Source: Phymorhynchus buccinoides
Taxonomy: Eukaryota; Mollusca; Gastropoda; Neogastropoda; Raphitomidae
Assembly (NCBI GenBank): GCA_017654935.2
Contig: CM065690.1
Span: 7,923,555 to 7,987,554 of the forward strand
Length of the DNA stretch: 64,000 nt
Direction of reading: 5' to 3'
In this document: positions 6,725 to 62,192 of the stretch, piece after piece
How positions within the stretch are numbered: the first letter of the stretch is position 1
Layout: every line of letters begins with the position of its first letter
Notes under the pieces: generated by a model
What the model saw: only the letters and a program-made list of their open reading frames with translations
Told to the model about the DNA's origin: nothing
Databases searched by the model: none
Translations under genes and position numbers: made by a program

Positions 6725-7187
6725 TGTGTGTGTTTGACTTTACCTTGTGGGACCTGTTTCGCCTCCTTGGGGTGGACAACGCGCTCAGTGTCTTCATGTG
6801 TGTGTTGTGTGCAGATATTGGGGAGCCCCCGTTGTTTGACTTTGCCTTGTGGGACCTGTTTCGCCTCCTTGGGGTGGACAACGTGCTCAGTGTCTTCATG
6901 TGTGTGTTGTGTGCAGATATCGGGGAGCCCCCGTTGTTTGACTTTGCCTTGTGGGACCTGTTTCGCCTCCTTGGGGTGGACAACGTGCTCAGTGTCTTCA
7001 TGTGTGTGTTGTGTGCAGATATCGGGGAGCCCCCGTTGTTTGACTTTGCCTTGTGGGACCTGTTTCGCCTCCTTGGGGTGGACAACGTGCTCAGTGTCTT
7101 CATGTGTGTGTTGTGTGCAGATATCGGGGAGCCCCCGTTGTTTGACTTTGCCTTGTGGGACCTGTTTCGCCTCCTTGGGGTGGACAG
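6725..7187 (+). repeat. Exon 4 acceptor array, 102-bp unit
   Basis: Five copies precede the authentic exon 4. Units start at 6815, 6917, 7019 and 7121 after a partial first copy, with exact 102-bp (34-codon) spacing. Each includes the TGTGTGCAG acceptor and the exon start IGEPPLFDFALWDLFRLLGV. The last intronic unit is 67 bp because 35 bp containing the acceptor are deleted. Copies are open in frame until that deletion. Confidence 0.95.
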
Positions 7188-7313
7188 ATATCGGGGAGCC
7201 CCCGTTGTTTGACTTTGCCTTGTGGGACCTGTTTCGCCTCCTTGGGGTGGACAACGTGCTCAGTGTCTTCATGTGTGTGCTGCTGGAGCATCAGATCCTC
7301 TTCTACTCCTCCG
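7188..7313 (+). CDS. DENND5: DENND5 exon 4 (uDENN/cDENN boundary)
   Basis: Residues 247-288. Peptide: NIGEPPLFDFALWDLFRLLG, then VDNVLSVFMCVLLEHQILFYSS. It matches the family segment ELPLFDF...LLGVENVFQLF..ALLEFQILLYS. This is the last of six copies of a 102-bp repeat, and only this copy continues into the LEHQILFYSS end and the GTCAGT donor at 7314. Its acceptor AG (7186-7187) lies in coding-derived sequence (ggggtggacag), because a 35-bp piece present in the other copies, including their TGTGTGCAG acceptor, is missing before it. Entering from the preceding copy at 7121 would shift frame and stop near 7212. The 5' boundary is therefore inferred from frame, not from a strong splice site. Confidence 0.85.
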
Positions 7314-8690
7314 GTCAGTTGGAAAACGCTTCCTTTTTATGTACATGATGTATGTCGCTGTGAGACTTGAACATTATGGGATTTGTAGGGATTAGGGATT
7401 TGTTTGCATGTATTAACTTTTAATACCCTATAAGGAAGTGGCTGAGCCAAGCCCATAATCCTGTAAGGATTTGGCAGAATGAGGTAGAAAATGGGTATGC
7501 TTATTCAAAATATTATATTGAAATTATTTGTGAATAAAAGTTAATGAAACTTTGTAGTAATCTTGCTATGATATTGTTTTCTGTGTTGACAATGTTATTT
7601 TTGCCAATTTGACATTTTGTGTTTGTTTATTTTTATTGATTATCACGAAATAAATAAAAATAAAGGTGTGTTCAACAAAGATGATCAAAAAACAATGTGT
7701 GGTGTGTTTATTATTAAAACATTGCAGACACAAGTCACTTACATGATCAGAGAAGCACTAAAAGCTGAAAATAAACTTAGTACTTGCCTTTCTGTAGTAT
7801 TTTAGTAATGCAATCAACAGGTAAAAATGATGTTCGGATACGCACACCTGTCGGTCTCATTGCTGATCATTCGCGATCGAAGTTTTCGTTTGAAAAGTAT
7901 CTCTATGCTTTGTATAAAGTGTTAAACCACTCTTATAAAAATCAATGAAACTATCCAATTCACTGTCTAAAATAGTGTCCGAATGCTCGGCAGTTGACCG
8001 GTCGTCGGAATCGTTTGATTGATTTTCTGTCGATCGATAGTCGAAGTTAACCATAGTAGGCACTGCACTAGCATGAGTCTCAACAGTCACTTCACTCTGG
8101 CCCCTATAACTAAGTCCAAAAGCATGATTGGCACACAATTTATCGGTGAAAACATCGATAACATCGTCGTCTATCGCTTGGACCGTCGCCATTTTGATGA
8201 AAAAAGATTGTCCAAAAAAATCGCGAAGAAAATCGATCAAAATTAGCCTTCAATCGATCTCTGTGCAAATGGCGGCCATTGCAACAGGAAGTTAGACGCT
8301 TTCCGGCTGTCGTTAAAGCTTCCTCTCTGCACTAGAGAGTTCCCACTTCCTTAGCAATATGACTAAACAACGTGGGTGGATCGGAGCGGTTTCAAGCTGT
8401 TCAGAATTACGGGCCAGGAGCGGTTTCAAGCGGTATAGGACGTTAAAAGTTAACATAATAGATTATAAAATAAGTTATTTAACACTCTGTAAATTTGATG
8501 TGTTCTGGTACTTAGGTCCTCCGAAAAGTTCCTTTCTGTTCTGGAGTGAACAAGTTTGTTCTGAATGGTTTGATATTGATTCCCCTTTGCCTTATGTTAA
8601 GTGCATGTTCTTGAGTGCAGATTTCCAGTGGCTAATGCTAACAGCAGAAGGATTGAACTGCTAGATCTATATATATATTTTGTGTTTTGA
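7314..8690. other. Intron 4 left part, no gene recognised
   Basis: AT-rich. A minus-strand open frame at 7857-8240 encodes an acidic 127-residue peptide starting MIDFLRDFFGQSFFIKMATV with many Asp/Ser/Thr residues; I do not recognise it. It could be a transposon-derived fragment, since it is flanked by CpG-richer sequence unlike the surrounding intron. Confidence 0.3.
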
Positions 8691-8699
8691 AAAGTGAAC

Positions 8700-59115: not shown

Positions 59116-59233
59116 CTTCCACGTTTTTCCTTTTTACAATTTATGACATGCCAGGTTGTTTTTTTATTGTACACGCGTGATAATTACGCACTTGAGTGAA
59201 CACCTGTTGTCCATTCTGCAGTGCATATTTGCT

Positions 59234-60934
59234 TATATGACTCTGTGCCAAAAGGTGGGCATGAAAAGTGGACATAGAGGGTAAAAAATGAAACTATTAA
59301 TACCATTTAAATACATGCATATTTAGAAAGGATATAAATGAGGCAAAACATGTGCAAAGTGGCAGGACAATTTTTCAACCGATTTCTGAGAAAATAGTGA
59401 TAATGTGGTGACCCCCACCTGATGACAAACATCAATGATTACATCACAACCATGGTGTTATGTCACAGTATTTTCTCATAGCTCCAGCAAATCTTGTTGT
59501 GTTAAGTTGTTTTCATTGTTTGCTATTAGTCTGTGAAATTTCCTGTTGAAATTTGTTGTTAGTATGATGATTATTATGGGTCTGTTGAGGTAACAAATGA
59601 CCTTCGTCATCACTTTACATTTGAAAGTTGTATCAAACACACTCATTCTGTCTTTAAGTACTTAAAATGCCATGAAAACCCTAATTACAAGTTAACTGAA
59701 TATTTTCTACCAAACTATTAATTGATTCATGCCATTGTTTTTGTTTTATTACACAATGTGTGAAAAATGTATGACGAACATCAAAGTTACCTAAATCATT
59801 TATTTTCCAGTTTCTGGCCAAAATGTCTATGAATAACTGTATTTTTGTCAACTACAGTAAGCAGAATGCTTTAAAGAAAATAAAAACTTGCATGAATAAA
59901 GTTTTTTTCAAAAAACTATTGAATTATTTATCATAATTCACTATTTACACCATAGGACATGTATGACGAACATCATAGTTACATTAATAATTTTCATTAA
60001 GCACTATTTTTTCATTTATCTTTCTATGAAGGCTGAAAAGTGCTCTAAATTAATTACTAAACCCACTGAAGTGGTGTTCATTTGTTTATTAGATGGTTAG
60101 ACCAAAAAAACCAGCTAAATTTGATAATTAACATTTTCTTGATGACGAACATCAAGTCCAGTAAAATGATTACATTGAACATTTGGATTAGTGCAGAAGA
60201 AAGAAATGAACATGCTGGTGTTAAATAAGGGTAGGGGTCAACTTTATATGACAGTTTAATTGTAAAATAAAAGAGAGCAAGTTAAAAATATATATCTTGA
60301 GGATTTTATTGAGCATTATAACTTAGGTATGACGGATGTCAAGTGTTACATCTAAGTCAGAACCTTTAAGAGAAAGTGCAATATTATTTAAAATAATATA
60401 TTTTGTAAGAAACTTTTATACTCCTATGATAAAGTAATATCTGCTCCAACAAAGCATGACATTTTCATGTATTTTGGATTTATATAAGTGAAAATTGTTG
60501 GGAAGTTTGATTTTGGTTAAATGATTACATCAAAAATGATGTTTGTCATCAACATTGGTTTAAGTCTAATAACTAACAGAACTTTCATTTTTGAATGTTA
60601 CAATCTTTAGCGTTTACTAATGAGGTACTTTTGCATAACCTGTCCAAATTTCAAGTAATTTTACTGGAGTTTGTGTGTTCTAGCACTTGTTGAAATCATG
60701 ACTATTTGCAATGTCCACTTTTGAAGACCAGATTTTGGGGCTGATTTGACATTCATTGTCACATAACTAAATAACTACTGATCTTATAAAGCTGATATTG
60801 TCTCTAGTGTCTTTTCAGACATTTGTCTATATGTTTATAACATAAGCACAACAGTCAGAAGGTTATGTGACAATTTATTGAGAATGTAAGTACCTGACCC
60901 TCTCCGTGCTCACCTTTTGGCACAGAGTCATATA
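59234..60934. mobile_element. 1.7-kb TIR element with periodic internal motif
   Basis: Termini TATATGACTCTGTGCCAAAA followed by GGTGGGC, mirrored at the right end by the reverse complement (gctcaccttttggcaca, gagtcatata). The AT-rich interior lacks a transposase frame. A motif close to ATGACGAACATCA recurs near 59424, 59600, 59771, 59967, 60142, 60331 and (opposite strand) 60530. The element family is not identified. Confidence 0.8.
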
Positions 60935-61447
60935 GCCTTTTTTATTTATTTTAGCTTACTACTACTAGTATGTATAAAAATAAATTGTTATCCTTTTTTA
61001 TTTTTATTTTAGCCTGGATCCGATAAATGAGAGTAGCGTGGCTCCACGTTTCCAGCACTGTGTGGACTTATGTGCTATAGGGTATAATGATGGAAGTGTC
61101 ATGTTATGAATTGTACTACATTTTTTGTTTGCAGGTTTTGTACGTTGTTAAGATTCATGGATTTGTGTTTTGCTATACATGGTAGAACTTTATGCGGTGA
61201 CAGTCCTGAGATAACCATAGCTGTTGACGGGACTATAACAGACTAACTGACTAAATGACTTGGGATTAGTAGTACATGGATCTCAATATCAGGGTAAGCT
61301 GGTCTGATAAACAGCAGTGTGGTTTTCAGCAAAAGAAGCATGCTGCAACAACATAGAAGAACAGAGGAAAAATGGTCCTCAGATTCTCAGGCCTAGTAAT
61401 AGTATTGTAATGTTGGATGTGAAGTGATGACGAAACAACAACTGTTG

Positions 61448-62192
61448 TGTGTTGTGTGTTCAGCACAAGAACCTGGGTGTGTTGACCACGCTGAGGGTGG
61501 GGCACGACAACAGTGTGTGTGTTGTGTGTTGTGTGTTCAGCACAAGAACCTGGGTGTGTTGACCACGCTGAGGGTGGGGCACGACAACAGTGTGTGTGTT
61601 GTGTGCTATGTGTTGTGTGTTCTGTGTTGTGTGTTGTGTGTTCAGCACAAGAACCTGGGTGTGTTGACCACGCTGAGGGTGGGGCACGACAACAGTGTGT
61701 GTTGTGTGTTGTGTGTTCTGTGTTGTGTGTTGTGTGTTCAGCACAAGAACCTGGGTGTGTTGACCACGCTGAGGGTGGGGCACGACAACAGTGTGTGTGT
61801 TGTGTGTTATGTGTTATGTGTTGTGTGTTCTGTGTTGTGTGTTGTGTGTTCAGCACAAGAACCTGGGTGTGTTGACCACGCTGAGGGTGGGGCACGACAA
61901 CAGTGTGTGTGTTGTGTGTTATGTGTTGTGTGTTCAGCACAAGAACCTGGGTGTGCTTACCACGCTGAGGGTGGGGCACGACAACAGTGTGTGTGTTGTG
62001 TGTTATGTGTTGTGTGTTCAGCACAGGAACCTGGGTGTGCTGACCACGCTGAGGGTGGGTCACGACAACAGTGTGTGTGTTGTGTGTTATGTGTTGTGTG
62101 TTATGTGTTGTGTGTTCAGCACAAGAACCTGGGTGTGCTGACCACGCTGAGGGTGGGTCACGACAACAGTGTGTTGTGTGTTGTGTGTTCAG
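61448..62192 (+). repeat. Exon 18 acceptor array, 73-112-bp unit
   Basis: Eight decoy exon starts at 61464, 61541, 61646, 61742, 61854, 61938, 62022 and 62120, then the real one at 62193. Each has gtgtgttcag, about 48 exon bases (HKNLGVLTTLRVGHDN) and a variable GTGTTGTGT spacer. Unit length varies because the spacer varies. Confidence 0.96.

What the first reader, a model, noticed from the sequence alone, without database searches (positions are those of the whole stretch)
6725..62192. Tandem arrays repeatedly nucleate on splice junctions of one gene
Eleven of the 37 splice sites visible in DENND5 lie in tandem arrays whose unit spans the exon-intron boundary. Acceptor arrays: exons 4, 5, 7, 14, 16, 17, 18. 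Donor arrays: exons 5, 10, 15, 16. Units range from 39 to 117 bp, their sequences are unrelated, and copy numbers run from 2 to about 17. In every case the copy contiguous with the exon is the one that joins in phase and matches the family. Ordinary minisatellites would not be expected to hit exon edges this often, although the introns also hold arrays with no exon content (49, 66, 86, 67, 47, 44, 37 bp). This suggests a process that preferentially duplicates DNA at exon edges, or retention of decoy splice sites. I do not know of a described counterpart.
Basis: partly seen in the sequence, partly recalled or inferred. Interest (0 to 1): 0.88.

Follow-up and report, generated by a model that had tools for sequence, protein, structure and literature searches.

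The report
Mirage repeats on snail splice junctions
In a DENND5 gene that most likely comes from a sea snail, 11 of 37 exon edges lie inside short tandem repeats that copy the exon-intron junction, a pattern already named "mirages" in amphioxus; the extra copies show no sign of coding constraint, are probably ignored by the splicing machinery, and seem to form at exon edges more often than elsewhere.

Summary
The gene is a DENND5 (uDENN-DENN-dDENN-RUN-PLAT), 86% identical to Babylonia areolata, so most likely from a caenogastropod snail. Of 37 visible splice sites, 11 (7 acceptors, 4 donors) each lie in a separate tandem array whose unit spans the junction. [quoted passage not shown] PGBD5 likened to them). 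My open-access searches listed no molluscan case. Enrichment depends on the null. Shuffling whole arrays expects 9.6 sites, so 11 is ordinary. But arrays grow from one seed unit; seed units placed at random expect 1.3 (P about 2e-7), or 2.9 once the GC preference of arrays is modelled (P about 2.5e-4). Junctions therefore attract arrays in this window, partly because exons are GC-rich. The exon-contiguous copy differs from its decoys by 6 synonymous and 1 non-synonymous changes; decoy-private variants are 3 and 13: the contiguous copy looks coding, the decoys drift (without the exon 17 array the contrast falls to P 0.06). In 10 of 11 arrays a decoy scores no worse than the true site, so position, probably exon definition, must select it. 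No RNA, reads or genome were available.

The parts
6731..7279 (+). Array on exon 4 acceptor (true site 7187/7188); unit 102 bp, 5 copies of the site, last spacing 67 bp
   Evidence: exon match 92 bp
8702..9319 (+). Array on exon 5 acceptor (9313/9314); spacing 39 or 42 bp, 16 copies, 6 bp of exon
9428..10898 (+). Array on exon 5 donor (9501/9502); spacing 111-117 bp, 13 copies
14547..15131 (+). Array on exon 7 acceptor (15104/15105); spacing 58 or 60 bp, 10 copies
27932..28144 (+). Array on exon 10 donor (28003/28004); unit 111 bp, 2 copies of the site
51976..52181 (+). Array on exon 14 acceptor (52167/52168); unit 42 bp, 5 copies
52923..53700 (+). Array on exon 15 donor (52976/52977); unit about 71 bp, 10 anchored copies
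54553..55052 (+). Array on exon 16 acceptor (55023/55024); unit about 71 bp, 7 copies
55129..55374 (+). Array on exon 16 donor (55142/55143); unit 67 bp, 4 copies
57081..58056 (+). Array on exon 17 acceptor (58030/58031); unit 44 or 52 bp, 17 anchored copies, interrupted once
61443..62242 (+). Array on exon 18 acceptor (62192/62193); spacing 73-112 bp, 9 copies
1813..62721 (+). DENND5 gene, exons 1-19 of a longer gene (homologues continue beyond); includes cassette exon 13 at 35265-35351

Best explanation
These are mirage-type minisatellites: 11 separate tandem arrays, each of which most likely grew by slippage or unequal exchange from a seed of about 40-115 bp that happened to span a splice junction of what is most likely a snail DENND5 gene, leaving the exon-contiguous copy as the likely working junction and the other copies as decoys inside the intron. 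Shown by the sequence: each unit spans a junction, the contiguous copy reads in frame, the contiguous copy carries the mark of coding constraint and the decoys do not, and 70 of 87 decoys score at least as high as the true site. Inferred: the true junction is chosen by position, because it gives the shortest exon when acceptor and donor are paired across the exon (exon definition), so copies on the intron side are tolerated. Arrays lying wholly inside exons would be removed by selection, which would leave junction-spanning ones as the only visible record of seeding in exonic DNA. Seeding is favoured by GC-rich sequence, which explains part of the excess at exon edges; the remaining excess of about 3.7-fold points to some further property of exon edges that I cannot identify.
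For: 11 of 33 arrays and 11 of 37 splice sites. Seed-unit null mean 1.34, Poisson P 1.9e-7, none of 20,000 simulations reached 11. GC-weighted seed null mean 2.95, Poisson P 2.5e-4, none of 4,000. Similar with a lenient repeat threshold (41 arrays, still 11 hits, null 1.56) and with arrays of at least 3 copies only (10 of 25, null 1.01). None of the 22 other units matches an exon at E 0.01, 10 of 11 junction units match the flush edge of the adjacent exon and the eleventh shares 6 bp. Contiguous copy against decoy majority 6 synonymous to 1 non-synonymous (P 0.0009); decoy-private 3 to 13 (P 1.0); Fisher P 0.005 (81 of 87 decoys). In 10 of 11 arrays at least one decoy scores as high as or higher than the true site; 70 of 87 decoys do, 30 of them strictly higher (from the one-decimal scores). 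Same structure in amphioxus, where authors say Adh3 data and their RT-PCR suggest undisturbed splicing (PMC3087553 passages; PMC3902484 passage).
Against: Shuffling whole arrays gives 9.6 expected sites (P 0.39, 5,000 simulations), so a reader who prefers that null sees no excess. Only one gene was tested and it was chosen because it looked striking. The GC rates rest on 22 arrays outside junctions. No RNA, reads or second haplotype: assembly errors and leaky decoy use are not excluded. At exon 4 the four upstream decoys score far better (12.1) than the true acceptor (-0.6), awkward for clean splicing. Seven of the 13 non-synonymous decoy variants come from the exon 17 array; without it the contrast is 6:1 against 3:6, Fisher P 0.06. 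Only 4 of 9 decoys at exon 7 and 15 of 16 at exon 17 could be used. Exon-derived parts of decoys differ less than intron-derived parts overall (4.7% against 10.2% pairwise), which could hint at constraint, though the exon 5 acceptor and exon 17 arrays dominate that figure. Slippage or unequal exchange was not tested; breakpoints could not be resolved.
Confidence: 0.8

Rival explanations
1. Ordinary minisatellite background: the genome is so rich in arrays that some must cover splice sites, and nothing about junctions is special.
For: Arrays cover 30.4% of the window and full-array shuffling expects 9.6 of 37 sites. Arrays outside junctions prefer GC-rich DNA (relative rates 3.1 and 4.2 in the two bins above 50% GC), and exons are 60% GC.
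Against: Each exon-bearing array repeats a junction-spanning unit, so the junction had to lie in one seed of about 40-115 bp; seeds at random expect 1.3, or 2.9 with GC weighting.
Confidence: 0.3
2. Retained decoys: extra junction copies are kept by selection because they help splicing or make useful isoforms.
For: All 28 decoys of the exon 5 acceptor, exon 5 donor and exon 10 donor arrays are in frame without a stop; one reading frame runs unbroken from 8698 to 10911 through both arrays of exon 5. Arrays outside junctions are mildly rich in acceptor-like sites (mean percentile 0.695, KS P 0.011; donor-like P 0.27).
Against: Private variants in decoys are 3 synonymous to 13 non-synonymous, as expected without constraint. 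Three of 11 arrays wholly in frame and open is close to the roughly 2 that I estimate without a call. 58 of 87 decoys would shift the frame or add a stop. The 7 aligned homologues show no inserted repeat peptide at the 11 junctions, weak evidence because they are annotated proteins of other species whose introns I did not see.
Confidence: 0.08
3. Assembly artefact: arrays inflated or invented by mis-joined or error-rich reads.
For: Not testable here; the amphioxus globin authors say that the draft-genome version of one mirage appears aberrantly assembled (PMC3087553).
Against: Eleven essentially unrelated units, 10 of 11 arrays with variants among their copies (exon 10 has a single decoy), each next to an exon that reads in frame; inflation could alter copy number but would hardly create units spanning junctions.
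Confidence: 0.07

Closest known systems
Mirage minisatellites of amphioxus (Adh3, globins BflGb6 and BflGb9, TnC; PGBD5 likened to them). Passages of PMC3087553 and PMC3902484 read; the 2002 Adh3 paper not held, known only as cited there
   Same: Tandem repeats whose unit spans an exon-intron boundary, at acceptors and donors, units from 10-72 bp (Adh3) to about 160 bp (globins), many copies carrying AG/GT signals, authentic copy next to the exon.
   Different: Here the host is most likely a caenogastropod mollusc, and 11 junctions of one gene are affected, where the passages that give a number describe one or two per gene; splicing and haplotype variation are untested.
Internal tandem repeats at exon-intron boundaries of human segmental-duplication genes (PMC2812944, passages read)
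   Same: Minisatellite expansion at an exon edge that can change intron structure.
   Different: There the repeats vary between recent paralogues and often change the transcript; here the predicted coding product is unchanged.
Intron gain by duplication of AG/GT proto-splice sites (Rogers, as cited in PMC3087553)
   Same: Duplicated splice signals inside a gene supply raw material for new splice pairs.
   Different: No new intron is seen: the reading frame is accounted for by the exons that align with homologues.

Membership tests
Mirage minisatellite | Repeat unit spans an exon-intron boundary | tested here: met
   11 of 33 arrays, exon part 6 to 92 bp
Mirage minisatellite | Both 5' and 3' exon boundaries can be affected | tested here: met
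   7 acceptors and 4 donors
Mirage minisatellite | Repeat copies carry AG/GT splice signals, the authentic copy being the one joined to the exon | tested here: met
   87 decoys with the signal (at most 3 mismatches in 11 bases to the true site) over 11 arrays; contiguous copy in frame in all 11
Mirage minisatellite | Regular mRNA splicing is not disturbed | not testable with these tools
   No RNA data. Indirect: contiguous copy under coding constraint, decoys not
Mirage minisatellite | Copy number differs between haplotypes or cells | not testable with these tools
   One assembled sequence only
Mirage minisatellite | Concerted evolution inside the cluster, with end copies left out of it | tested here: inconclusive
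   End copies differ more from the decoy consensus than inner copies in 7 of 10 arrays with four or more copies, two ties, one the reverse (tallied by hand; gap columns counted)
DENND5 | uDENN, DENN, dDENN, RUN and PLAT domains in order | tested here: met
   All five above Pfam cut-off; 86% identity to Babylonia DENN domain-containing protein 5B-like

The most novel reading that the evidence does not exclude
Splice junctions themselves are hotspots for tandem duplication in this lineage, beyond what base composition explains, so that mirage formation is a general animal process seen in both amphioxus and molluscs that keeps supplying genes with spare splice sites.
Probability: 0.3. Interest if true: 0.8.

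Novelty: new member of a known kind. Interest (0 to 1): 0.55.

Why it matters
The papers found here describe mirages in cephalochordates only. Eleven of them in one gene that is most likely molluscan would show that the phenomenon is wider and can be very dense. It would give a natural experiment on how the splicing machinery picks one of many near-identical sites and on how spare splice sites could seed new introns. It also shows that repeat-density tests on full-length arrays can hide a seeding preference.

Tried and rejected
Solved-structure searches with two N-terminal pieces found nothing; the C-terminal piece matched Rab6-interacting protein 1, 3cwz, best of 4 matches. Rfam (gathering threshold) and tRNA scans were empty. 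That array-bearing acceptors have weak pyrimidine tracts was not significant (P 0.21 and 0.17), although their matrix scores looked low. That arrays crowd round exons in general was not supported (distance KS P 0.52; 5 of 22 within 100 bp against 2.1 expected, P 0.055). Seeds centred on the junction: weighed by hand, dropped because exon 4's unit is about 90% exonic. Recursive splicing through decoys: of the 7 array-bearing acceptors only exons 7 and 16 begin with GT, so it cannot be general. Amphioxus as source: rejected, the Branchiostoma homologues among the best 120 listed are at 42-52%. Breakpoint microhomology: not resolved, because array ends are ragged. Papers on mirages or junction arrays in molluscs: none recognised in the listings (13 papers; 0; 1; 7; 2), of which I saw titles and starts of abstracts, plus passages of two gastropod papers: PMC3862624 (cone-snail introns with simple microsatellites, nothing on junction arrays in the passages) and PMC7084494 (nothing relevant). 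Open-access library only.
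Full report
What the window is. An exon-joined protein of 1092 residues from the plus strand (18 exons, cassette exon left out) carries uDENN, DENN, dDENN, RUN and PLAT domains. It is 86% identical to a Babylonia areolata DENND5B-like protein and 78% to that of Littorina saxatilis, each over 100% of the query; the Branchiostoma homologues among the best 120 listed are at 42 to 52%. 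Babylonia is a neogastropod, so the source is most likely a caenogastropod snail; the species was not identified. Exons are 60% GC, with 83% GC at third positions, in a window whose 2-kb stretches run from 37% to 56% GC.

The observation. Nineteen exons including a cassette exon (35265-35351) give 37 splice sites. Thirty-three tandem arrays with period of 20 or more cover 30.4% of the window; 11 of them hold one splice site each, 7 acceptors and 4 donors. At E 0.01, 10 of these 11 units match an exon, always the flush edge of the neighbouring one; the eleventh, at the exon 5 acceptor, shares only 6 bp. None of the other 22 units matches an exon, and only 1 of 528 unit pairs matches, over 13 bp.

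Is it more than chance? Two nulls give opposite answers. Shuffling the full-length arrays expects 9.6 sites (sd 3.4, P 0.39, 5,000 simulations). That test treats a 1.5-kb array as a 1.5-kb target. But an array is a grown copy of one seed, and each junction array repeats the junction in its unit, so the junction had to lie in the seed. Collapsing every array to one unit (46,534 bp) and placing units at random, excluding places wholly inside exons, expects 1.34 sites; 0 of 20,000 simulations reached 11 and the Poisson tail is 1.9e-7. A lenient repeat threshold (41 arrays, extra ones given 40-bp units, null 1.56, still 11 hits) and arrays with at least three copies (10 of 25, null 1.01) agree. 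Arrays outside junctions themselves prefer GC-rich seeds, with relative rates of 3.1 and 4.2 in the two highest GC bins, estimated from 22 arrays; weighting by that raises the expectation to 2.95, P 2.5e-4. So composition explains about 37% of the excess on a log scale and about 3.7-fold remains. Arrays are not clearly crowded near exons otherwise (5 of 22 within 100 bp against 2.1 expected, P 0.055). The gene was picked for being striking, so these P values are optimistic for the genome as a whole.

Which copy is the exon? The contiguous copy joins in frame at all 11 junctions and lines up with homologues there; at the exon 16 donor the window lacks one residue that Babylonia and Littorina have. 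Differences between the contiguous copy and the decoy majority are 6 synonymous to 1 non-synonymous, where 23% synonymous is expected (P 0.0009). Variants private to decoys, each distinct variant counted once, are 3 to 13 (P 1.0). The contrast has Fisher P 0.005 (81 of 87 decoys used, misses in exons 7 and 17). Seven of the 13 come from the exon 17 array; without it the contrast is P 0.06. The contiguous copy has therefore evolved as coding sequence, and the decoys show no such mark. Against this, exon-derived parts of decoys differ less than intron-derived parts (4.7% against 10.2%), a figure that two arrays dominate.

How would splicing cope? With matrices built from the 11 acceptors and 15 donors of this gene that are not in arrays, at least one decoy equals or beats the true site in 10 of 11 arrays, exon 10 being the exception; 70 of 87 decoys score at least as high, 30 strictly higher. 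Some of these scores are low in absolute terms (exon 7 from -5.1 to -2.7), true site included. Strength alone cannot pick the right copy. In every array the true site is the one that makes the shortest exon, which coding continuity forces and exon definition (established knowledge) would prefer; that step is inferred. Of 87 decoys, 29 would add an in-frame insert without a stop: all 15 at the exon 5 acceptor, all 12 at the exon 5 donor, the single one at exon 10, and one at the exon 16 donor. Exon 4 is the odd case: its true acceptor follows a shortened 67-bp copy and scores -0.6 against 12.1 for four decoys.

Comparison. [quoted passage not shown] the authors report both boundaries affected, units of 150 to 160 bp in globins and 10 to 72 bp in Adh3, haplotype differences in copy number, and RT-PCR that suggests undisturbed splicing (PMC3087553, passages). 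A later paper likens tandem repeats in lancelet PGBD5 to these, names TnC as a further case, and argues that its own repeats are real (PMC3902484, passage). The original 2002 paper is not held. The present arrays meet the three structural criteria that could be tested; turnover was inconclusive, splicing and polymorphism untestable. Searches with gastropod, mollusc or intron-gain wording listed no mollusc case that I recognised (listings, plus passages of two papers), in open-access papers only. I file this as a new member of a known kind, most likely in a new phylum and at unusual density.

Limits. No reads, RNA, second haplotype or genome were available; the whole-genome tool did not answer in seven tries. 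Junction preference is therefore a one-gene result.

Noticed in passing
31538-31849: Intronic array (84 bp, 3.7 copies) whose unit scores at the 0.99 percentile for acceptor-like and 0.97 for donor-like sites; could mark an unannotated exon.
   Followed up: partly
29580-30349: Intronic array (86 bp, 9 copies, 99% matches) starting 59 bp after exon 12, with an acceptor-like site at the 0.99 percentile.
   Followed up: partly
8698-10911: A single open frame of 737 codons runs through the exon 5 acceptor array, exon 5 and the donor array; decoy use on either side would insert peptide repeats into the DENN domain.
   Followed up: partly
35265-35351: Cassette exon (GLPKRHSLIDITSL...) present in 6 of 7 aligned homologues and absent from P0003, so probably alternatively spliced.
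   Followed up: partly
7121-7188: The last copy of the exon 4 array is shortened to 67 bp, which gives the true acceptor a different and weak upstream context.
   Followed up: partly
45596-49077: Very long intronic array, 37-bp unit, about 90 copies, 3.5 kb, GC well above its surroundings.
   Followed up: no
37717-40367: Intronic 44-bp array of about 60 units with nested higher-order periods.
   Followed up: no
23708-24310: Minus-strand frame that resembles a Tc1/mariner transposase relic by eye (recalled); no Pfam match at 0.001.
   Followed up: partly
55129-55142: Exon 16 lacks one residue of a stretch kept in Babylonia and Littorina; the decoy copies share the exon's end sequence.
   Followed up: partly
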